Source: Russula earlei (taxonomy: Eukaryota; Basidiomycota; Agaricomycetes; Russulales; Russulaceae). From it: 64,000 nt of DNA. Both the position numbers and the translations under genes were made by a program. Under the pieces are notes generated by a model that was given only the letters and a program-made list of their open reading frames with translations, was not told where the DNA came from and did no database searches. The stretch covers positions 1 to 64,000 of the forward strand of contig JAGFNK010000108.1 of the NCBI GenBank assembly GCA_025769875.1, in the 5' to 3' direction. Shown here in pieces: positions 41,331 through 53,859 of this stretch (position 1 is the stretch's first letter; each line of letters opens with the position of its first letter).

Positions 41331-42159
41331 TGTTACGAACCAAGGCCAGGCACTGGCCGAATATTGTCCTATTTCACTCAAGAGAGATCTCTCTCACTTT
41401 GCATTACCAACTCCCTTTCAATTCTTGGGGTATCCCTCCTGTGGTGCAAGATATCACTATTGCAAAGGCACTATAACATGACCAGGCACCTATTTCCTAA
41501 TCGGGTAATCATCGCGTGGCAGCCACATGGTCACCCAGCCACCAGGAACCCAAAACAGTGGCACAAACTCTTAGAAACTGTTGCATAACTCATCTGACAT
41601 CATCAGGGCTCCAATGACATCATGGCTGACTGAGCCACTCCACAGTGACCTCATAGGCTCACTAAGCACTCCACAGTGACATCATAATGATGTCATCGCT
41701 CCACAATGATCAGTAATGCACTCAGTAAGCCTGAAACTTGACACAAGCAAGTTTATGCCTCTGTAGTCCTATTGGATGGTACCAAGGGGTCTAGAATAGT
41801 TCCAGTTCTTTGTAATCGACCCTGTACACTGTATATAAGCCCCAATGAAGTATGGCAGTCGTCAGACTGTCCATTTGTGATACTCTCATCTTCCTGGGTA
41901 CTCCCCCGCGACTGCTCAGTCTAAAGATTCCCCTTGCCTCCAAGGTACTCTTCTACAACCGCCTTGTTTAAAGCCCCCTCGCTACACTGGCCTCCAGCCT
42001 TTGCCTTTGTCTCTTGCAGCATCTACCAGTCCCCATCTGGTACCTCCTCATTGTTTGGCTCATCCTCTTGTTCAACGCCGCCTCCGCCGCGTACCATCTG
42101 TTCTGACCCTTGCCCACATGCTCCTGAGTCCTTAGTGATCAGCAGTACGTGTCTTGACA
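41331..42159 (+). repeat. Gy4-a 5' LTR, 829 bp
   Basis: It starts TGTTACGAACC and ends TGTCTTGACA. GTATATAAG at 41831-41839 precedes AGACTGTCCA (41864-41873). The internal sequence just after the LTR contains TGGACAGTCT (42162-42171), its exact 10-nt reverse complement, taken as the self-priming site. The left flank CCATC (41326-41330) has no partner in view. Confidence 0.92.
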
Positions 42160-42205
42160 TCTGGACAGTCTCTCATCATCCTTGTATTGACCAGCCAATG
42201 CTCAA

Positions 42206-43129
42206 GTGTCCACTCCCAACTCCCCCACTTTTGTCAACACTTCCCTGCGTCTCCCTTCTCCTCTCCAACCCACTCCATGCACTGCCCTTCGTCTCCTCAC
42301 TGAAGACCTCGAACCAGTTGACATGTCCTCGCCCCTCAGCATCCTGTACTCCCCAGAAGCCCCACCAACATCTCCCAATGTTCCCCAGCCTGTCCCAGGC
42401 AACTTTGTCCCTGTCGGCACTCCCCCTCCAGTGGAGAACGAGCAACAGCAAGTGGATCGTCCTCCCTTGCCTGAAGGCTTCCTCAACCATCCCCCCTGCA
42501 CAGCATTTTGCTTCCACCCGCACCAATACTTCATCCTCCCTACCACCAACCGTTCCCGCGAACAGTGGCGTCCCCTCCACAACTTAAATCACCAAGACTA
42601 CCTGTTGCGCATCCCTACTGCAGACCAGTTATCTCGTCGTACCTTCACAGACACTTACACCACCGCCTTTCGAGCACGCGTCGTCCACACTTTTGTGGTG
42701 GAACCCTCCAACACTGCCCTCGCCACTGAGTACAACCTCACCCCCTTCGGCATTTGCTCTAATGTCGGGATATACGCCCCGGACACTGACTTTCCCCTTG
42801 GATGCATCGCATACATTTTTAACTCTTCTTTGTTTAGGAAACTACTTACCTTGCCTGCTATCTACCATCCTGCTTACGAGGGCTCATTTTGCTTATCTAT
42901 CATACATGACTTCATGGACGGACACCTCGCTTTCGCTTACGGTTACTTACATTTCGAGGAGAACAGTAACCGCGTATCCCTACATCATTATTCGACTTAC
43001 ACAGTCGACACTGTATGCTTCAACCCCCAGTTACTTCGCTTCTGTTTCACACCTCGTATTCCCCCTAACCCTCTTGAAATAATTGAGAGGTACCACCTCG
43101 AAACGATAGATCTTGTGCACAGTTCTTGA
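42206..43129 (+). CDS. Gy4-a ORF-A, unknown protein, about 307 codons
   Basis: This is an uninterrupted frame between the primer-binding site and gag. The N-terminal ~100 residues are Pro/Ser-rich. The rest looks globular: CTAFCFHPHQYFILPTTNRS, HLAFAYGYLHFEENSNRVS, then LLRFCFTPRIPPNPLEII near the C-terminus. There is no ATG at the start of the frame (GTG at 42206, also GTG in Gy4-b); the first in-frame ATG is 42323. In 67 aligned codons against Gy4-b (42659-42859) I count 15 silent and 9 replacement codons, a silent excess that implies selection on the protein. AATAAAG occurs twice about 20-40 bp after the stop. No homologue was recognised. Confidence 0.72.
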   Translation: MSTPNSPTFVNTSLRLPSPLQPTPCTALRLLTEDLEPVDMSSPLSILYSPEAPPTSPNVPQPVPGNFVPVGTPPPVENEQQQVDRPPLPEGFLNHPPCTAFCFHPHQYFILPTTNRSREQWRPLHNLNHQDYLLRIPTADQLSRRTFTDTYTTAFRARVVHTFVVEPSNTALATEYNLTPFGICSNVGIYAPDTDFPLGCIAYIFNSSLFRKLLTLPAIYHPAYEGSFCLSIIHDFMDGHLAFAYGYLHFEENSNRVSLHHYSTYTVDTVCFNPQLLRFCFTPRIPPNPLEIIERYHLETIDLVHSS

Positions 43130-43194
43130 AAAGTAAGAACCACCCTTGTAACACTTCAATAAAGATCGAATAAAGATCATCCTTTTGCTTTGAT

Positions 43195-44116
43195 TAAAGT
43201 GCCTCGTGAATATGCCTTAGAAGAAGACGAAGAAGAAGATGCTATCACTTGACACGTCTTAAGCCTAAATCATTATCGAACTTGGACCTCCGTCGCGTTC
43301 CCTGTCTCTACTTCAACCAACTTACACGACGTACCAGAAATTGAACCGCCTCACGAAGACTTCCCCCACCTTATTGTTAAAGAGTTCCTTGAAGTCTTAC
43401 CTTTTGGACAACTCTTAAGCCACGATGAACATGCACTATATCTTGAAACCCTTAGTTGACTCCTGCCACCAGCATGACAACAACTATTATATTGGCACCT
43501 TGCTCAAGCGAAGAACATCCAAGGACAGCCAGTTGACTACCAATCCTTATGCACCAGTGAATTAAACCTCTGGACCAGAGTCATTCAACCATGTCACCAC
43601 ATCGTTATCCACTCCTTGAGAATGGGATATCGCTTATTCTACTTAGCTTGGACCTATATCAGCTACTATCAGCTCACAGTTCAGTTCTACCATCTATGCC
43701 TTAACAGAATACAAAGAGAGGATCGACCTTACATTCAACTTGCAATTGTACCAGGAATACACAATACCTTTGACTGGGAAACTAACTCCTGGTTATATGA
43801 TGTAGATTACAATCAACCTTGGGCGATTACCAGCCCAGATGCCTCATATACTGGTCCCCCTACATATTATTCAGCCCCAGCAGTCCTCGAAGCCTCAAGC
43901 CTCGTCCCTTGACCCCTCACACCAATCCAAACCACTGTCCCAACCAGTCAAGAACGTTGGTCCACCAGTACAGAAGGTACTGAGACAGATCCATGGATTA
44001 CCCAGTGTAACTGCAAAGCAGAGTATTGCACATGCGGTTATTGACCAGACACACCTCCCACTCCTAATGGAATCACCCTGTGGACACCAGGCAATTATCA
44101 TCTCCCAATTCAGTAG
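43195..44116 (+). pseudogene. Gy4-a ORF-B, unknown protein, about 305 codons
   Basis: One frame runs from about GTG 43198 (VPREYALEEDEEED) to TAG 44114-44116. Features: HEDFPHLIVKEFLEVLPFGQ, an aromatic-rich predicted helix (RLFYLAWTYISYYQLTVQFY, about 43630), VPGIHNTFDWETNSWLYD, and a C-terminal Cys cluster CNCKAEYCTC (about 44010). It contains in-frame TGA codons; those at 43457 and 43910 are CGA in Gy4-b, so they are secondary losses. No ATG lies near its start in either copy. No family was recognised. Confidence 0.65.
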
Positions 44117-44700
44117 TCCTGGCTCCTCGACACAGAAGACGTGCAACACCTCAGCAAGCTCCCTCTAGAGAAACAGTTCCAAACGCAAGAGGATTCCTTG
44201 TTGAAAGACCATTACCTCCTACTCCCCCTGACACCTACGTACCCCTGTTTACCAGTCGTATTCCTACACCTGTCGTACCTTCTCAACCCTTTGCATCACC
44301 ATTAGTCGAATCCCCTGATAGTATCGACATTAGAAATACTGAACTACATCTTTATTTGCCAGAACAATCCTTCTTAGCTCTGAACCTACCTACGCAATCG
44401 AAAAGAGAATTACTTGAATTCAAGAACTATTGTATGCAGGCTTGGCATTTAAGGACGACACACTTTGTGGTGTATCAACATCCCACCTGAGAGATAAATG
44501 ACTTTGCTATCTCAGCAGCAGAATTCGAAAGATACTTGTGGAAAACCCAAGTAGTCTTGACCCAAAGTAGCATCACTAAAGAATACTCCTGAATCCACTT
44601 AAGAAAACACCAAGGAAGACCGACACCATTCGACTGAAACCAGCCTACACCATTGCATATCCTTGGAACAACGACCATTGGACTATAACTGCCATCTAGA
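44080..44700 (+). pseudogene. Gy4-a ORF-C, unknown protein, about 205 codons
   Basis: It overlaps the end of ORF-B in the -1 frame. A basic N-terminus (VVLAPRHRRRATPQ) is followed by Pro-rich sequence and a predicted helical part (QSFLALNLPTQSKRELLEFK). TGA codons at about 44488 and 44590 and a one-base deletion near 44618, relative to Gy4-b, break it. Its natural C-terminus, readable from both copies, is YTIAYPWN...WT with TAG at 44698, five bases before the gag ATG. It may be expressed by frameshifting from ORF-B, since it has no ATG of its own at the overlap. Confidence 0.58.
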
Positions 44701-44703
44701 TCT

Positions 44704-46212
44704 ATGAGCACTAGGGGAGACATCACTGACGAAGAAGAAAATCTAATCCCACTCCTATTTGAAAACCTCAGCTATGACACCCAAGATCACTGTTATCGAG
44801 GAAGATTTGCGGGTACACCTATTATCAACCACAGAAATCTTTCTGACACTTGGTTATACGAAGACGAAAACAACGAAGTTACCACCGAACAACTTAAAGC
44901 AGCAGCCCCAGGGGCAGAGCACGTTCAAGACTTCAATCCCTATAACTACACAGGCCTCTTCCTAGACAAACCAGTCAAGTGGAGCCATTCTAGAAAACAT
45001 TGGGTTTACTATAACAATCGAGAAGTCGATTTTACAGCCAGAACAACTCAAGAAGTTACCGCTATCTTAGGAACTGCTCAGAGCACTCGAAGCACTACTC
45101 CAGGACCTTCCACCCGATGTAATACCCAACAACCTACCCCTCATACAATTAGCAACGTACCACAAGCAGTCCCTCAAACACTTACTCCAACTAGAATCCA
45201 ATTACAAGGATCAGCCCCACCTATTGTTACAGCTGCAACAACTCAGAACCCCACCATGTCAAGCAATCCACGCCTCATCGGAACTGCACCAGAACCCTTT
45301 GATGGAAAGGCTGATAATGCAGAAGCCTTTTGGGCAGCTTTGGCCAATTATTACTACATCAATGGTGACTCCTTGACAGATGAAAGCAAGAAAGTCGCCG
45401 CTGCACTAACCCACTTTAAAGTAGGAACACCCGCCGGAGCATGGGCTAGAGAACAAACCACTAAGGCTATGGCTCGTACAGGAGCAGACTATGGATCATG
45501 GGAAGATTTCAAGAAAGCCTTTGCCGATCACTTCATCCCTGCAGAAGCAGAATTGGCCTCCGCTAACACCATGCACACCTATTATCAAGGGAAATTACCA
45601 TTTAATGAATGGTATCAGAAATGGTTGCACCATGCATCACAAGCTACCACTGACAAAAGAACAAAGATGTATGCATTCAGGAAGAACATTAACCCGGCCC
45701 TACATCAGAAAATACTAGGGATCACACCGACACCAACATCACTTGCAGCCCTTGTCAAAGCAGCAAGAGAATTTGACAACCTTTTCCACCTCTACAATTC
45801 CACTGCTTTTCGAGGAGGACGATCTGTCCATGCCCGAGGATTAAACACTCAAGGATCAGACAATCCATTGGAAATTGACTTGTACCAAGGAGAACCTAAT
45901 GAACGACCCTGGGAATCCAGAAGTGAAAGGAAACCCCTCACAGATGCAGAGAAAGAGTTTCGATGCAAGAACAACCTCTGTTATTATTGTGGAAAGAAGA
46001 ATCATATGGCAAATCAATGTAGAGCAAATAAAGCAGCCCAAGGATGCCAATGACAAGGATCTTGCCCCCAAACAGTCAGAGCTACAACCATCCAAGATGA
46101 AAACATCAAACCTATGCAAGAAGAACCTGTTCCTGTTGCATCACTGACAACTTGGAGAGAAACACTTGCAGGCTCAATCCTCCGCCCAAGATCTGCTCCT
46201 ATGGATTTTTAA
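44704..46212 (+). CDS. Gy4-a gag
   Basis: The true ATG at 44704 (MSTRGDITDEEENL) opens 449 codons to TGA 46051, then the same frame continues to TAA 46210. Residues 1-130 form the N-terminal module (HCYRGRFAGTPIINH, DTWLYEDE). Residues about 195-345 are a typical retrotransposon capsid domain (EPFDGKADNAEAFWAALANYY, WEDFKKAFADHF, FNEWYQKW). A CCHC knuckle CYYCGKKNHMANQC lies at about 426-439. The stretch after the TGA is acidic/basic linker ending MDF, where GGATTTT (46203-46209) is the slippery site into pol. It is the best preserved gag in the window. Confidence 0.88.
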
Positions 46213-47733
46213 TTGGACCCCCTTCTGCACTGAGAAGGGATGCGGTCCAAATCAGTATGATACAAAGAGAAATCAATTACCCCAAGGTTTTTACCAAGAA
46301 TATTCGCTCCCCATCTATTGCCTTGAAAGTTACTTTAGTGGGAAAGACAAGTGGCAAAGAACTCGGTGCAAGAGCCCTGCTCGACAGTGGAGCAGAAGGA
46401 ATGATAATCCATGAATGATTCGCACGAAGACACCACCTGCACCTCTGAACTATGATCAAACCATTGCCAGCACAAAATGTAGATGGAACACAAAATGCCA
46501 ATGGACTAATACACTTTAGCACCATCCAAAGACTTTGCATTCAAGCACACACAGGCGCTACTCATGATGAACAAGCAGAATTCCTTGTCACTAACATTGG
46601 AGATCATGACATCATCTTAGGAACAGATTGGGTATGACACCACAACCCAGATATTGATTGGGCAAATGACACAATCACACTGAGGAATTGCCACCGAACC
46701 TGCCTTACCATGCACCCAAGCATAACCATTGCATCTGCATCTGGAACGCGGAATTACCAAATACAAGCGCTTACTTTCCCCGAAGAAGAAGAACCTGAGT
46801 TTGCAAATGTGTCTGCACTAATCTTCCCAGATACTGAAGGACCATTGAACCCATGTGTGGATGAACAAATCTACAACGCATTTCAACCAGTGACAATCAG
46901 CATAAGAGCCAAATCAACCACAGCTACGAAACTAGCCCATGCAGAAATGCCCCCCAAGACATTAGACGAACTTATCCCTGTCCAGTTCTTGAAATGGTGA
47001 AAGGTTTTCGACGAACAAGCCTCTCAACGCCTTCCTGCTCACCAACCATGGGACCATACAATCAATCTGAAACCAGGGATCGCCCGACGCAATTCTGGCA
47101 TCTATCGACTTACCCCCAAAGAACTACAAGCCCTAAAAGAATACTTAGATGAAGACTTGAAAAGAGGCACTATCCAACCATCAAAAGCAGCTATTGCCAG
47201 TCCATTCTTCTTTGTAGAAAAGAAAGGAGGGAATCTACAACCAGTACAAGACTACAGAGCCCTGAATACAGCAACTGTCAAAGACGCATATCCCACTACC
47301 TTTGATTCCTGAACTAATCGACAAACTCCAAGGAGCTCAATATTTCACCAAGTTTGACGTACGATGGGGATACAACAATATCCGCCTAAGAGAGGGAGAT
47401 GAACACCTTGCAGCATTCAAGACACCATTAGGACTCTTCGAGCCATTGATAATGACATTTGGTCTCTGCAACGCCCCAGCCACATTCCAACGCTTTATGA
47501 ACACCATCCTAGCAAAATACATTGCCACTGAACAAGTGGTCGTTTACCTAGATGATATACTAATCATGGCACAAACCTTGGACACATTAGACGACTGGAC
47601 ACACAAGGTCCTAAAGACACTCCAAGACCATGGCTTATACTTGAAACCAGAGAAATGCGCTTTTCGACAAACCTCTATTAGTTACCTAGGCATCAATATC
47701 TCCCAAGGATGAATATCGATGGACCAAGACAAG
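46204..47733 (+). pseudogene. Gy4-a pol, 5' part (protease and most of RT)
   Basis: In the -1 frame from the slippery site: FLIGPPSALRRDAV, protease ARALLDSGAEGMIIHE (about 46365; the family signature is DSGA), HDIILGTDW. RT begins near 46990 with FFFVEKKGGNLQPVQDYRALN, then FTKFDVRWGYNNIRL (47342), NAPATFQRFMN and an intact YLDD (about 47546). Stops at 46416, 46447, 46635, 46998 and 47710 are all TGA, and the first base of a CGA Arg codon is the likely origin of most. The frame ends after ISMDQDK where X begins. Confidence 0.82.
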
Positions 47734-48040
47734 TTATTGCTGTTTTCAGCGCACTTGGCGGAGCTTGAATTCCACCCAAATCGGCGCAGAAACCCCCTCA
47801 AACATGCGGGATGAATATCTCCCTCAAAACAGCTTTAACTTATATGAAATTTATTGTCCCTGAATCGCCTGAATGAGGGCTAGGCAGCCCCATTGTTTTC
47901 ATGAGATTTGAGTGAGAATTGGTGGAGCTGGACTCAAGCCACCTCCACATGTGTATTAGATGAATTACAACTCAAAATCATGGTCTATATCTATTATTTT
48001 TCTCTCATGTTGTACCCATGGGCTGTCTTGAGGCAGCCCC
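47734..48040 (+). mobile_element. Sequence X, copy a (307 bp)
   Basis: From TTTTCAGCGCACTTGGCGG (47742) to AGGCAGCCCC (48040) it is near-identical to 61565-61862. Its left edge follows TTA in both places. It starts abruptly inside Gy4-a pol and ends abruptly at the Gy4-b LTR. It contains the repeated word AGGCAGCCCCAT and a hairpin GGGCTG-TCTTGAGG-CAGCCC (about 48020-48040). Type unknown: it could be the end of a DNA transposon or Helitron, or an LTR fragment. Confidence 0.6.
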
Positions 48041-48869
48041 TGTTACGAACCAAGGCCAGGTCCTGGCCATAGATTGTCCTCTTTCACTCAAGAGAGACCT
48101 CTCTCACTTTGCATTGCCAACTCCCTTCCATTTTCTGGGCCATCCCTCCTGCGGTACAAGATATCGCTATTGCAAAGGCACTATAACATGACCAGGCACC
48201 CGTTTCCTAATCGGGTAATCATTGCGTGGCAGCCACATGGCCACCCAGCCACCAAGGACCTGAAACAGTGGCACAAACTCTTAGAAACTGTTGCATAAAT
48301 CATCTGATGTCATCAAGGCTCCAATGACATCATGGCTGACTGAGCGACTCCACAGTGACCTCATAGGCTCACTAAGCGCTCCACAATGACATCATAATGA
48401 TGTCATCGTGCCACAATGATCAGTAATGCACTCAGTAAGCCTGAAACTTGACACAAGCAAGTTTATGCCTCTGTAGTCCTATTGGATGGTACCAAAGAGT
48501 CTAGAATAGTCCCAGGTCTTTGTAATCGATCCTGTACACTGTATATAAGCCCCAATGAAGCATGGCAGTCATCAGACTGTCCATTTGTGATACTCTCATC
48601 TTCCTGGGTACTCCCCTGCGACCGCTCAGTTTAAAGACTCCCCTCGCCTCCAAGGTACTCTTCAACGACCGCCTTGTTTAAATCCCTCTCACTGCACTGG
48701 CCTCTGCTCTTCGCCTCTGCCTCCTGCAACACCTACCAGTCCCCATCTGGTACCTCCTCGTCGTTTGGCTTGTCCTCCTGTTCAACGCCGCCTTCACCGC
48801 GTACCATCTGTTCCAACCCTTGCCCACCTGCTCCTGAGTCCTTAGTGATCAGCAGTACATGTCTTGAGA
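48041..48869 (+). repeat. Gy4-b 5' LTR
   Basis: It is 829 bp, near-identical to 41331-42159 except that it ends GTCTTGAGA. It is followed by the same internal sequence (TCTGGACAGTCTGTC) with primer-binding site TGGACAGTCT at 48872-48881. The left flank is GCCCC (48036-48040), the expected target duplication within X copy a. Confidence 0.9.
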
Positions 48870-48915
48870 TCTGGACAGTCTGTCACCATCCCTGTATTGA
48901 CTAGCCAACCCTCAA

Positions 48916-49827
48916 GTGTCCACTCCTAACTCCCCCACCTTGGTTAACACTTCCTTGCGCCTCCCTTCTCCTCTGCAACCTACCCCACGACTTCTCACTG
49001 AGGACCTCAACCCAGTCGACACATCCTCACCCCTCAGCATTCTATACTCCCCAGAAGCCCCACCATCGTCTCCTGTCATCGCTCAGCCTGTTCCAGGCAA
49101 CTTTGTCCCTATCGGCACTCCCCCTCCAGCGCAGAACGAGTAGCAGCAAGCGGACCGTCCTCCCTTGCCTGAAGGCTTTCTCGATCGCCCTCCTTGCACA
49201 GCATTCCGGTTCCACCCTCATCAGTACTTCGTCCTTCCCACCACCAATCGTTCCCGCGAGCAGTGGCGTCCCCTCCACGACTTAAATCACCAAGACTACC
49301 TGGGACGCATCCCTACTTCAGACCAGTTGAGTCGTCGCGCCTTCACAGACACCTACACAACCGCCTTTCGTGCATGCATCGTCCACACTTTTGCTGTGGA
49401 ACCTTCCAACGCTGCCCTTGCCACCCAGTACAACTTAACCCCCTTTGGTATCTGTTCCAACGTCGGGATATACGCCCCGGACGCTGACTTCCCCCTCGGA
49501 CGCATCGCATACATCTTTAACACTTCTTTATTTAGGAAACCACTTACCTTGCCTGCTATTTACTGTCCTGCTTACGAGGGCTCGTTTTGCTTATCTATCG
49601 TACACGACTTCTTGGATGGACGTCTCGCCTTTGCTTACAGTTACTTACATTTTGAGGAGAACAGTAACTGCGTCTCTCTACGTCACTATTCAACTTATAC
49701 AGTCGACACCCTACGCTTCAACCCCCAGTTACTTCGCTTCTGTTTCACACCTCGTATTCCCCCTAACCCCCTCGATATAATCAAGAGGTACCGCCTCGAA
49801 ACCATAGATCTTGCGCACGGTTCTTAA
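48916..49827 (+). pseudogene. Gy4-b ORF-A
   Basis: It is homologous over its whole length to 42206-43129. One TAG at 49141-49143 breaks the Pro-rich N-terminal part; the globular part (49165-49827) is open. The first in-frame ATG of Gy4-a is changed to ACA here. The reading frame is otherwise kept while third codon positions differ freely, supporting past coding function. AATAAAG follows the stop, as in Gy4-a. Confidence 0.68.
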
Positions 49828-49887
49828 AAAGTAAGAACCATCCTTGTAACACTTCAATAAAGATCGAATAAACCTTTCTCTTTTTGC

Positions 49888-50806
49888 CTTAACTAAAGTG
49901 CCTCAAGAATACGCCTTAGAAGAAGACGACGCTATCACTAGACACGTCTTAAGTCTAAATCACTATTGAACCTGGGCCTCCACTGCATTTCCTGTTATCA
50001 CCTTAACAAATCTACACGACATACCAGGAATAGAACCACCCCACGAAGACTTTCCTCATCTCATTGTCAAAGAGTTCCTTGAAGTCTTACCATTTGGACA
50101 ACTCCTAAGCCACGATGAACACGCATTATATCTTGAAACCCTTAGTCGACTCCTGCCACCAGCATGACAACAACTATTATATTGGCAACTCGCTCAGGCA
50201 AAGAACATCCAAGGACAACCAGTTGATTATCAATCCCTGCGCTCTAGTGAATTGAATCTTTGGACCAGGATCATCCAGCCACATCACCATCTCATTGTTA
50301 ATTCTTTAAGAACAGGGTATTGCCTGTTTTACCTGGCTTGGACATACATCAGCTACTATTGTCTCACTGTCCAGTTCTACCACCTACGCCTCAACAGAAT
50401 ACAAAGGGAAAATCAATCTTATGTCCAACTTGCTGTTGTACCAGGAATACACAACACCTTTGATTGGGAGACTAATTCTTGGTTATACGACGCAGACTAC
50501 AATCAACCTTGGGCAATTACCAGCCCAGATGCCTCATATACTGGTCCCCCTGCATACTATTCTGTCCCAGCAATCCTAGAAGCCTCGAGTCTTGCCCCTC
50601 GACCCCTCACACTGATTCAAACCACTGTCCCAACTAGCCAAGAACGTTGGTCTGCCAGCATAGAAGATACTGAATCTAATCCGTGGACAGCAAGGTGTAA
50701 CTGCAAAACAGAGTATTGCACGTGCAACTTTCAACCAGATACACCTCCTACTCCTGACAGAATCACCCTGTGGACACCAGGCAATTATCACCTCCCAAAT
50801 CACTAG
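49888..50806 (+). pseudogene. Gy4-b ORF-B
   Basis: It matches ORF-B of Gy4-a, ending with the Cys cluster CNCKTEYCTC and a TAG at 50804-50806. CGA codons at 50157 and 50600 are intact here but TGA in Gy4-a. A shared TGA (50165-50167, after LLPPA) is present in both copies, so it was inherited or is read through. From 50252 to 50806 the frame is open. Confidence 0.65.
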
Positions 50807-51357
50807 TCCTGGCTCCTCGACACAGAAGACGCGCAACGCCTCAGCGAGCCCCCTCTAGAGAAACAGTTCCCAACGCAAGAGGATTCCTTGTTGAAAGACC
50901 ATTACCTCCTACTCCCCCTGACGCTTACCTACCCCTGTTTACTAGTCGCATTCCTACCCCTGTCATACCTTCTCAACCCTTTGCATCGCCATTTGTTGAA
51001 TCACCTGATAGTATCGACATTAGAAATACTGAACTTCACTCCTACCTACCAGAACAATCTTTCTTAGCTCTAAACCTACCTACACGTTCAAAAAGAGAAC
51101 TACTTGAATTCAAGAACTATTGCACACAGGCTTGGCATCTTAGAATGACACACTTTGTAGTATATCAACATCCCACTAGAGAGATAAACGACTTTGCCAT
51201 CTCACCAGCAGAATTCGAAGGATACTTGTGGAAAACCTGAGTAGTCTTGACCCAAAGCAGCATCACCAAAGAATACTCCCGGATCCACTTGAGAAAGCAC
51301 CAAGGAAGACCCAACACTATTCGACTGAAACCAGCCTACACCATTGCATATCCTTGG
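50770..51357 (+). pseudogene. Gy4-b ORF-C, cut by the L5 insertion
   Basis: An open frame of 156 codons to TGA 51238-51240, then the same frame continues (VVLTQSSITKEYSRIHLRKH) to YPW at 51357, where L5 is inserted. The end of the ORF resumes at 60213 after the CTTGG duplication and stops at TAG 60244, just before the gag ATG at 60250. Confidence 0.58.
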
Positions 51358-51668
51358 TGTCATGAACCATTCTCTGGAGAGGGCCCTTGAAGGACCCTTC
51401 CTTATAGGAGGAAACCCAGCCTCCATGGTGTCACCCTGTTCACACAAGCAAAAGGGGTGAGTAGAGGTGTCCACAATATCGCGCGCGCATTGTTGCGCGA
51501 GCGATTCTCGGCACAATCGACATATAGCAAGCCCCACTTAAAGGCAACCCTTCTAGCAACAAAAGACAGTATTAGGGCCTTCCTGAGGACCCTTTGGAAT
51601 GACCCTAGGAGCTCTACTGTAGGCACTAACCTAGTATCAAAGGCCCTACAACGCGTTATTAGACCAAC

Positions 51669-52302
51669 TGTTGTAATCTACCCCCTTTTTTGGTTCGTCC
51701 ATTATTGTTCTTCTTTGATTATCCTTGTCTCCGTGGTTACTGTTTCATCCCTTGATGGTGATCCCCTATTGTTTTATCTATTGTGTTTCACTTGTTGTGT
51801 TTCATCTATTGTGTTTCACTTATTGTGTTTCACCTATTGTCGAGTTACTTTTGCTATTGGTCTACCTTTATCTATTGTTCCGCTTATGGTACTGTACAGC
51901 CTCGCCACATACAGTATTTAAGCGCCTGTAGAAGCTGGGGAATGCCCCAAGCTTAGCTTTGTCCCATTCCCTGTCGCATCCCTTGCCCTGTACTCTCTCT
52001 CAATCACAACTTGCTTGTGCTGGCCTATACTTTGCTTGACCTAAGCACACCTCAAGGAACCCTTGTGTTCCTCTTCCTCCTCTGCCTCTCTCTCATCGCT
52101 CTCTTCTTCTGTGAAACCAGAAGATCGACTCTGTCTGCGGGCTGAGTCATTGTTTGACTAAACCTTGAGACGCTAAACCTCTGAACCGGCCTTCTTGAGC
52201 CGGCCCCCATTGAACCCTTGAACCAAGTCACAGGGACTTGGCCCCCACTGAACCTTGAGCTAACGCTCTAACGGCCACGACGCCGTTACACAAGCTAAGC
52301 TT
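51669..52302 (+). repeat. Gy1-b 5' LTR and primer-binding site
   Basis: The LTR is 51669-52290. TATTTAA at 51915-51921 precedes AAGCTTAGCTT (51949-51959) by about 34 nt. AAGCTAAGCTT (52292-52302), one base after the LTR, is its exact reverse complement. TTGTGTTTCA-type units are repeated at about 51783-51840. Confidence 0.93.
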
Positions 52303-52776
52303 TCTACTCCATTCTGGAGATCAACCTCGAACTACCACCAAATCGTTGGGTCCGCAGTCCAACCTAGACCATCCCCAGACCTCCCTGAACACGTTGTAGG
52401 AGCTGCCACTTGGGACAGCTTTCACACTTTCCTCTGTTACATCACCACTGAAAACAACGAAGAACTACCAGTTGAATTTATCAACAATCATTGGTTTGAA
52501 CTACGACTTAGGAGAGGACAACTCTACACTCACCTTGACCTAGAACTCCTCAGAAATAGCCTTGGACTAGGTTACTGGAGGGAAAACGACCCCCTCTACG
52601 AACCACCATCAGAATCAGAAGCCTCTTCCACAGAAGGCAACCCCCCTGAACCAGAGAACACCGTTGAAACTCAGACACCCTTTGAATCCCCTGCACTAGA
52701 ACCAGAGGACCCCCTTGAAAACCAAGAAACCATCAAAACCCTAGAAATCAACCCACAGAACCCCCCAGAACCTGAT

Positions 52777-53859
52777 ATGGCAGCCCAACCCCAAGTCGCT
52801 GTACACCCCCCCCAAATGGCCGCTCAGGCCCCCCAGGTGGCCGCTCAGGCCCCCCAGATGGCCGCTCAGGCCCCTCATGTGGTTGCCCAGGCCCCTCCAG
52901 TCGTCGTTCCACCCCCTCAAGCAGCTGCTCCAGCACCACAAGGCACTAATGGGTCCCTCAGCGGTAAAGAACCCACTGCCTTCACAGGGGAAAGGAACAA
53001 AACAAAAAGATTCATCATGGAATTTAACCTATTCTGGGGCCTCAATGATGATAAAGCAGTGATGATCTCCCCTTTTAAACGAACAATGCTGGCTCTCTCA
53101 TATATCCAAGGGGAAAAGGTTGAAGAATGGGTCAATTCACAAGCGACCGCACTCAGAGAAAAGGTTAACAGGGCCCAGAACCCCATCAACAGAATGAACG
53201 AAGCATTATGGAATGACTTCGTCACAGACTTTATGTTCAAATTCACTAACACTGCGGAGAAAGAGGACGCCCAAGCAGCCCTCGCCAAACACACAATGAA
53301 GGAATCCCTTGACGATTACATTTCCACCTTCGAACAACTCCTGAATAAAACAGGGTGGCCAGAAACGGACGTTATCGCTATCGAAAGCTTCAAAAATGGT
53401 CTAAAAATTGGGCTCTACCGTGCAATCCTAAACAGAGATGTCTGGCCCACCACTCTTCAGGAATGGAAGGAAGAAGCCAGGAGACAACATCGACGTTTCA
53501 TCACCATCAGAGAAAAGCTCAAAGGGAAAACTACACACTCCCCCCCAGAACACAAGACCCATCACCCTGACCGAATGCAAGTGGACGCCGTCAAGTCCAA
53601 TTTCAAAAAACTCACTGAAGAAGAAAGGAAACAATTGGCAAAAGAAGGACGATGCTTCCGTTGTAGAGAAAAGGGACACCTTAGCCGAGAATGCCCTAAA
53701 AATACAGCTCCTACCACTTCCAAAGCCCGAATCACCGAATCACCCCCAGAACCAGCTAAAGAAGAAGAACCAGCCTCCATGGTAGCACGCATGAAAACCC
53801 TACCAGCCGAAGAACGAGCCAAAATCTGGGATCTCATACTCAAGGAGGATTTTCTCTAG
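52777..53859 (+). CDS. Gy1-b gag, 360 codons from first ATG
   Basis: The frame is open upstream as far as the primer-binding site and includes the N-terminal module (LPVEFINNHWFELRLRRGQ, about 52465), but no ATG precedes 52777; a one-base insertion near 52360 relative to Gy1-a may have removed the original start frame. From the ATG: a repeated Ala/Gln/Pro linker (AAQAPQVAAQAPQ, residues 8-40), a capsid-like domain (KEPTAFTGERNKTKRF, EKVEEWVNSQATALREKV, about 65-250) and a CCHC knuckle CFRCREKGHLSREC (about 293-306). It ends KEDFL with GGATTTT (53847-53853) and TAG. It packages element RNA. Confidence 0.88.
   Translation: MAAQPQVAVHPPQMAAQAPQVAAQAPQMAAQAPHVVAQAPPVVVPPPQAAAPAPQGTNGSLSGKEPTAFTGERNKTKRFIMEFNLFWGLNDDKAVMISPFKRTMLALSYIQGEKVEEWVNSQATALREKVNRAQNPINRMNEALWNDFVTDFMFKFTNTAEKEDAQAALAKHTMKESLDDYISTFEQLLNKTGWPETDVIAIESFKNGLKIGLYRAILNRDVWPTTLQEWKEEARRQHRRFITIREKLKGKTTHSPPEHKTHHPDRMQVDAVKSNFKKLTEEERKQLAKEGRCFRCREKGHLSRECPKNTAPTTSKARITESPPEPAKEEEPASMVARMKTLPAEERAKIWDLILKEDFL

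What the first reader, a model, noticed from the sequence alone, without database searches (positions are those of the whole stretch)
41331..51357. Gy4 retrotransposons carry three unknown ORFs between the 5' LTR and gag
Seen directly: two independent copies (42206-44700 and 48916-51357) share about 2.5 kb of protein-like sequence in three consecutive frames (ORF-A, -B, -C) before gag. In a 67-codon alignment of ORF-A I count 15 silent versus 9 replacement codons, so protein function was selected while the family was active. Known Ty3/gypsy elements normally start gag close to the primer-binding site. I recognise no domain; ORF-B has an aromatic helix and a Cys cluster. Inference: acquired accessory proteins, perhaps acting on host defence or RNA.
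Basis: partly seen in the sequence, partly recalled or inferred. Interest (0 to 1): 0.88.

Follow-up and report, generated by a model that had tools for sequence, protein, structure and literature searches.

The report
AUG-free accessory genes before gag
A mushroom retrotransposon carries three conserved proteins of unknown function ahead of its gag gene, in a stretch of about 2.5 thousand bases that appears to have been kept free of the normal start codon AUG, which suggests that these proteins start at other codons while most ribosomes scan past them to reach gag.

Summary
Both window copies carry about 2.5 kb of coding-like sequence between 5' LTR and gag (85% identical), in a genome that is Russula earlei or very near it. 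Variants shared by several copies are strongly purified: omega A 0.16, B 0.09, C 0.20, gag 0.12, against about 1 in LTR U3. Part of the region was found upstream of each of 40 gag loci scored.

ATGs in the other copies mostly replace ACG (170 of 217). Each ORF begins instead at an invariant non-AUG codon: A GUG, B GUG, C CUG, plus a CUG-started hydrophobic mini-ORF inside the LTR. ORF-B has 66 relatives; 62 of them hold 18 internal Met in 17,619 residues. No Pfam family or clear PDB fold match was found.

Best reading: a polycistronic leader read by leaky scanning from weak non-AUG starts, with gag at the first AUG, as in rice tungro bacilliform virus but about three times longer. Translation is inferred; protein functions are unknown.

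The parts
41331..42159 (+). 5' LTR of copy 1 (TG...CA, 829 bp); TATA-like box near 41833; conserved ATGs at 41845 and 41852, none downstream within the LTR
41987..42127 (+). Mini-ORF inside the LTR: CUG start (CTG in 49 of 49 rows, purine -3 and G +4 in all), hydrophobic 46-codon product in 38 of 49 rows (39 codons in this copy)
   Evidence: (omega 0.30)
42143..42194 (+). Possible short intron (GTACGT...TTGACCAG) across the LTR end and the likely primer-binding region; untested
   Evidence: read from sequence and alignments
42206..43129 (+). ORF-A, candidate GUG start 42206 (GTG in 43 of 43 rows with letters there), stop 43127-43129
43121..43141 (+). Hairpin around the ORF-A stop (exact 21-mer in 25 of 37 rows, not in this copy)
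43199..44116 (+). ORF-B, candidate GUG start 43199 (48 of 48 rows with letters, A at -3 in all), stop 44114-44116; broken in this copy
44119..44699 (+). ORF-C, candidate CUG start 44119, 2 nt after the ORF-B stop (45 of 45 rows; G +4 in all, purine -3 in the 43 where visible), stop TAG 44697-44699; broken in this copy
42160..44703 (+). Region with no ATG in any frame in 8 of 32 copies; this decayed copy has 26
44704..46053 (+). gag; its AUG is the first conserved AUG downstream of the two LTR ATGs, 4 nt after the ORF-C stop (TAGATCT in 28 of 37 rows)
47266..47712 (+). RT fragment (RVT_1); the pol frame is lost after this and was not traced further
48041..48869 (+). 5' LTR of copy 2
48697..48699 (+). 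CUG start of the LTR mini-ORF, copy 2
48916..49827 (+). ORF-A copy 2, GUG start, TAA stop; interrupted by TAG 49141-49143
49898..50806 (+). ORF-B copy 2, GUG start, TAG stop; interrupted upstream of 50168
50809..51357 (+). ORF-C copy 2, CUG start; TGA at 51238-51240; truncated at 51357

Best explanation
This is a Ty3/gypsy-type LTR retrotransposon of a Russula genome with an unusual polycistronic front end. Shown: between the 5' LTR and gag lie three protein-coding frames (A about 307 codons, B about 305, C about 193) under purifying selection. Shown: in the least decayed copies the 2.5 kb from the LTR end to the gag AUG hold no ATG in any frame, and with the LTR part after 41853 this makes 2.85 kb (7 of 7 such copies that have an LTR row). 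Shown: each frame begins at an invariant near-cognate codon (A GUG, B GUG, C CUG), and a CUG-started hydrophobic mini-ORF lies in the LTR. Inferred: ribosomes scan the full-length RNA from the 5' end; a few start at each weak non-AUG codon and make small amounts of A, B, C and the membrane peptide; the rest pass to the first AUG and make Gag. The close joints (B stop, 2 nt, C CUG; C stop, 4 nt, gag AUG) may add some reinitiation. Inferred more weakly: A, B and C are low-abundance accessory proteins acting in trans in the element's life cycle; B is a compact alpha/beta domain with a C-terminal, perhaps metal-binding, Cys cluster.
For: Coding. ATG absence: 8 of 32 copies have 0 ATG against 19.7-21.5 expected from dinucleotides; CpG and ATG counts correlate at -0.93 (32 copies); gag has 19.5 against 16.6 expected (27 rows). 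The same 8 copies: 0 ATG also from LTR 41853 on in 7 of 7 with an LTR row. Synonymous-codon shuffles of A+B+C of four copies keep 13-16 ATG on average (minimum 5-6 of 2000), observed 0. ATGs in the 20 other full-length copies sit on ACG of the CpG-rich copies in 170 of 217 cases. Starts: GTG 43/43, GTG 48/48, CTG 45/45, CTG 49/49, where only 22/293, 29/290, 12/156 and 5/45 codons are invariant; the start is the only invariant Val codon in A (of 11) and B (of 14) and the only invariant Leu codon in C (of 15). The LTR CTG is the only conserved near-cognate of R/U5 with purine -3 and G +4 among the seven codons scanned. Wider family: 62 ORF-B relatives have 18 internal Met in 17,619 residues; 16 of 62 start with V, 13 of them V-S. 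Precedents, passages read: PMC5902531, PMC5778647, PMC5487733.
Against: No RNA or ribosome data; the transcription start is unknown, and if it lies above 41845 two short uORFs precede the region. The ORF-A GUG has a poor context (C -3, U +4). GUG is a weak start in eukaryotes (recalled), and the scan is long. Good context is not special to the starts: 17 conserved near-cognates in 42160-44700 have purine -3 and G +4 and only one is an ORF start; of three such CTGs (41987, 43851, 44119) two are starts. 24 of 32 copies have 1-30 ATGs, the window copies 26 and 7; in the LTR only 18 of 34 rows have none after 41853. 14 of 62 relatives have internal Met (P0047 four), and two of three long Lactarius gene models have Met upstream. 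V as first residue partly reflects gene callers that accept GTG. The LTR mini-ORF rests on 22 shared variants (binomial p 0.006, one of several segments and frames looked at; omega 0.48 with CpG columns kept). An intron-like stretch at the LTR end could change the leader. Rows are related and were picked as best matches to the window, so counts are not independent events.
Confidence: 0.75

Rival explanations
1. Splicing: A-B-C is removed as an intron to make gag mRNA, and A, B and C are translated from other spliced RNAs that bring an AUG from the LTR.
For: GTACGT (42143) to TTGACCAG (42194), and GTAAGA after the ORF-A stop, look like fungal splice sites (recalled consensus). Plant Ogre is partially spliced (title of Neumann 2003 seen in the reference list of PMC2533021).
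Against: ATG avoidance in all frames over 2.5 kb would serve no purpose if gag RNA lacks the region. The GTAAGA site lies after the ORF-A stop, so it cannot fuse A with B in frame. Only 2 nt separate the B stop from the C start. No systematic intron search was made.
Confidence: 0.1
2. Termination-reinitiation or frameshifting: A, B, C and gag are read in series by the same ribosomes, with reinitiation at the close stop/start joints or a -1 shift from B to C.
For: B stop to C CUG 2 nt, C stop to gag AUG 4 nt, hairpin at the A stop; the open C frame overlaps the end of B by about 45 nt.
Against: Reinitiation normally needs an upstream ORF shorter than about 50 codons (PMC5902531). CCCAAAT at the B/C joint occurs in 1 of 37 rows; 22 of 37 read CTCCCCATTCGATAA. 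Serial reading does not explain absence of ATG in wrong frames.
Confidence: 0.1
3. Composition artefact: the region simply encodes Met-poor proteins, or its base make-up makes ATG rare.
For: The three proteins contain no Met in the four copies tested.
Against: Synonymous shuffles keep 13-16 ATG; dinucleotides predict about 20; gag next door is not depleted.
Confidence: 0.03
4. A-B-C is a host gene fragment carried along, or a decayed env-like or gag-like relic without function.
For: No known domain; both window copies are broken.
Against: Omega 0.09-0.20 on shared variants, like gag; part of the region lies upstream of all 40 gag loci scored; ORF-B relatives are found in many other records.
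Confidence: 0.02

Closest known systems
Rice tungro bacilliform virus and badnaviruses (Caulimoviridae)
   Same: ORFs ahead of the main polyprotein are free of internal AUG; RTBV ORF I starts at AUU; ribosomes leak through about 900 nt (PMC5902531, passages read)
   Different: Plant pararetroviruses; RTBV ORF II starts at AUG and the leader uses a shunt; here A, B, C and the LTR mini-ORF all lack AUG over 2.5-2.85 kb, in a fungal LTR element; no protein comparison with Caulimoviridae was made beyond the library searches
Gammaretrovirus glyco-Gag
   Same: CUG start in good context upstream of the gag AUG; the extension generally lacks AUG (PMC5778647, passages read)
   Different: glyco-Gag is an in-frame extension of Gag; here there are separate ORFs with their own stops
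Plant Ogre (Tat clade) extra ORF
   Same: In an Ogre family of Medicago an ORF of 1527 bp lies upstream of gag (PMC2533021, passages read)
   Different: One ORF; its AUG content and any similarity to A, B or C were not tested
Retrosat2, RIRE3, RIRE8 ORF0 (grasses)
   Same: ORF without assigned function upstream of gag-pol, Ka 0.26 and Ks 1.65 (PMC3485330, passages read)
   Different: Plant elements with LTRs of about 3 kb; one ORF; AUG content not examined here
Fungal chromoviruses with additional genes
   Same: Additional genes are mentioned for one fungal chromovirus clade (PMC2774666, passages read); additional ORFs of unknown function also in PMC2864245 (passages)
   Different: Those passages give neither start codons nor AUG content; membership in that clade not tested

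Membership tests
Ty3/gypsy LTR retrotransposon | LTRs with TG...CA ends | tested here: met
   829-bp LTR, 34 aligned rows; 41331-42159 and 48041-48869 in the window
Ty3/gypsy LTR retrotransposon | Gag with CCHC knuckle and retroviral-type RT | tested here: met
   PF03732, PF00098; PF00078 E 3.8e-30
Ty3/gypsy LTR retrotransposon | Integrase downstream of RT/RNase H | not tested
   pol of copy 1 is broken after RT; whole elements were not fetched
Polycistronic leaky-scanning leader (RTBV type) | Upstream ORFs free of AUG in all frames | tested here: met
   0 ATG in 8 of 32 copies; no ATG at any position in half or more of the copies
Polycistronic leaky-scanning leader (RTBV type) | Non-AUG or weak start of upstream ORFs | tested here: met
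   No conserved ATG; invariant GTG, GTG, CTG, CTG at ORF starts; use by ribosomes not shown
Polycistronic leaky-scanning leader (RTBV type) | Measured passage of ribosomes to the downstream AUG | not testable with these tools
   Needs ribosome profiling or reporters
Gammaretrovirus glyco-Gag | Non-AUG start in frame with gag and no stop between | tested here: not met
   ORF-C ends TAG, ATCT, gag AUG in 28 of 37 rows, in another frame; of the other 9, most alignments end short of it; one copy with indels, L022, reads through
Ogre/Tat | tRNA-Arg primer site, intron between gag and pol, dual RNase H | not tested
   pol not fetched; primer tRNA not assigned
Known protein family for A, B or C | Match to a Pfam, NCBIfam or PDB sequence profile | tested here: not met
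   No match over a curated cut-off; none in PDB sequences
Known fold for ORF-B | Structural match in PDB or viral models | tested here: inconclusive

The most novel reading that the evidence does not exclude
A eukaryotic mobile element whose genomic RNA carries four separate non-AUG-initiated cistrons (two GUG, two CUG, one of them inside the LTR) in a 2.5-2.85 kb AUG-free leader, with Gag made from the first AUG; its ORF-B is a broad, nearly methionine-free protein family that AUG-based gene finders would miss.
Probability: 0.6. Interest if true: 0.9.

Novelty: new variant of a known kind. Interest (0 to 1): 0.82.

Why it matters
If translated as proposed, this is a very long natural AUG-free coding leader (RTBV, the longest documented case I came across, is 900 nt) and a test bed for how far eukaryotic ribosomes can scan and how weak starts set protein ratios. 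It also points to a blind spot: proteins that do not start with AUG and contain almost no Met are easily skipped or mis-joined by gene callers (the two R. earlei models that match ORF-A carry N-terminal stretches that my copies do not show in frame). The ORF-B family, with a confident model and no clear structural match, is a concrete target.
Full report
Source. The window lies in a 66.6-Mb genome of 1374 contigs. Contig C1233 has the same length (12,569) as the contig of R. earlei protein P0002 and encodes it at 99% over residues 192-477, so the genome is Russula earlei or very near it. Counts of copies are lower bounds because searches score only the best candidates, and the copies studied were picked as best matches to the window.

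Observation. Copy 1: LTR 41331-42159, region 42160-44703, gag 44704-46053, RT fragment 47266-47712, after which the pol frame is lost. Copy 2: LTR 48041-48869, region to 51357, where another, apparently LTR-type, element begins. In the genome 40 of 624 candidates were scored and gave 43 matches to the region. Of 373 gag candidates 40 were scored. Upstream of these, 26 have A, B or C matches by coordinates (9; 10 by ORF-B; 7 by ORF-A only, of which C3 and C74 with 0.8-0.9 kb more spacing), 13 were confirmed as ORF-C by short fetches, and one (L068) keeps only about 20 nt of the end of C next to a nested insertion. No scored gag locus lacked the region altogether.

Selection. Variable sites, CpG columns excluded, show codon periodicity from just after the LTR to the gag AUG, in one frame for A and B and another for C (37 copies). 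Variants shared by at least 3 rows: A omega 0.16 (49 rows), B 0.09 (49), C 0.20 (45), gag 0.12 (30), wrong frames of these 1.6-3.8, LTR U3 0.9-1.3 (43 rows). Private variants: A 0.88, B 0.63, C 0.72, gag 0.33. With CpG columns kept, shared omega is A 0.28, B 0.20, C 0.28, gag 0.14 (all). So the proteins were under selection while the family was active and decay after insertion. Variants present in exactly two rows were left out of both classes, and each variant is classed against the majority codon, so these are ratios and not codon-model estimates.

ATG-free region. No position in 42160-44703 has ATG in half or more of the copies, nor does the LTR after 41852; gag has 20 such positions. Of 32 copies of at least 2400 nt, 8 have 0 ATG (19.7-21.5 expected); the other 24 have 1-30, the window copies 26 and 7, the most CpG-poor copy 30; CpG and ATG counts correlate at -0.93. 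Of 217 ATGs in the 20 copies outside the 12 CpG-rich ones, 170 replace ACG, so most look like decay products. Synonymous shuffles of A, B and C in four copies keep 13.4-15.9 ATG on average, minimum 5-6 in 2000; observed 0. Of the 8 copies with no ATG, 7 have an LTR row and all 7 have none from 41853 on; over all 34 LTR rows it is 18.

Starts. No ORF has a conserved ATG, yet one near-cognate codon at each start is invariant: ORF-A GTG 42206 (43 of 43; 6 rows have no letters there), ORF-B GTG 43199 (48 of 48; 1 row without letters), ORF-C CTG 44119 (45 of 45), LTR mini-ORF CTG 41987 (49 of 49). Invariant codons are otherwise 7-11%; in A and B the start is the only invariant Val codon and in C the only invariant Leu codon. 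Both CTGs have G +4 in every row and a purine at -3 in every row where it can be seen; the B GTG has A -3; the A GTG context is poor. Against this, 17 conserved near-cognates in the region have purine -3 and G +4 and only one of them is an ORF start. C starts 2 nt after the B stop, and gag 4 nt after the C stop (TAGATCT in 28 of 37 rows). The mini-ORF encodes a hydrophobic segment (38 of 49 rows with 46 codons, hydropathy maximum 1.98-2.24 in those), omega 0.30 on 22 variants, p 0.006; this part is the weakest.

Protein family. ORF-A: two R. earlei models only. ORF-B: one relative by single sequence (29%), 66 by profile from 4000 candidates, mostly ENA and JGI records without organism names, plus four Lactarius sanguifluus gene models. 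In the 62 of at most 345 aa there are 18 internal Met in 17,619 residues; 48 of 62 have none, and P0047 has 4. Four longer records (P0028, P0037, P0039, P0048) were left out of that count; they have 2, 0, 0 and 2. First residue V in 16, M in 45, L in 1; V-S in 13 and M-S in 21. That M records may also be GUG starts is a guess; I could not see their DNA. ORF-C was not searched in the protein collection. No Pfam match in five family members tested. AlphaFold of P0003 with 56 rows: pLDDT 86.8, 95-98 per block for residues 11-200, below 50 at 259-277. No clear structural neighbour. A second set of ORF-B-like places, 28-35% identical to P0010, is present in the same genome; its letters could not be read.

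Mechanism. Shown: coding, selection, ATG absence in the least decayed copies, invariant non-AUG codons at starts. Inferred: scanning of the unspliced RNA with leaky initiation, Gag from the first AUG. The nearest documented system is RTBV, where about 90% of ribosomes pass the AUU of ORF I and leaky scanning covers 900 nt of AUG-free ORFs (PMC5902531). Gammaretroviruses generally lack AUG in the glyco-Gag extension (PMC5778647), and fungi use near-cognate starts in the cpc-1 leader (PMC5487733). These papers were read by passages, not in full.

Novelty. Extra ORFs before gag are known in plants (PMC2533021, PMC3485330, passages), and additional genes in one fungal chromovirus clade (PMC2774666, passages). 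In some searches I found no LTR retrotransposon with an AUG-free leader. I class it as a new variant of a known kind, because each ingredient has a precedent while the combination and length do not, as far as searched.

Noticed in passing
43121-43141 and equivalents: The ORF-A stop sits in a hairpin (8-bp stem, -7.7 kcal/mol; exact 21-mer in 25 of 37 rows) followed by two AATAAA-like motifs; role unknown.
   Followed up: partly
42143-42194: Intron-like stretch (GTACGT...TTGACCAG) that would remove the LTR end and the likely primer-binding region from an mRNA.
   Followed up: no
G000:C19:26823-27686 and about 30 other places: Apparently a second, distant ORF-B family in the same genome (28-35% identical to P0010; open frames mostly 300-353 codons).
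   Followed up: partly
copies of 42160-44703: CpG decay: CpG per copy ranges from 128 to 25 and seems to produce TGA from CGA and ATG from ACG; it could serve to rank copies by age.
   Followed up: partly
51358-53859: Apparently a different LTR element (own gag-like ORF 52264-53859) inserted into copy 2; a similar sequence, reversed, interrupts the copy at L068 just before gag (by eye).
   Followed up: no
P0028, P0037, P0048: Lactarius sanguifluus gene models join ORF-B to a shared upstream stretch; two of the three have internal Met there, so some relatives may have another front end.
   Followed up: no
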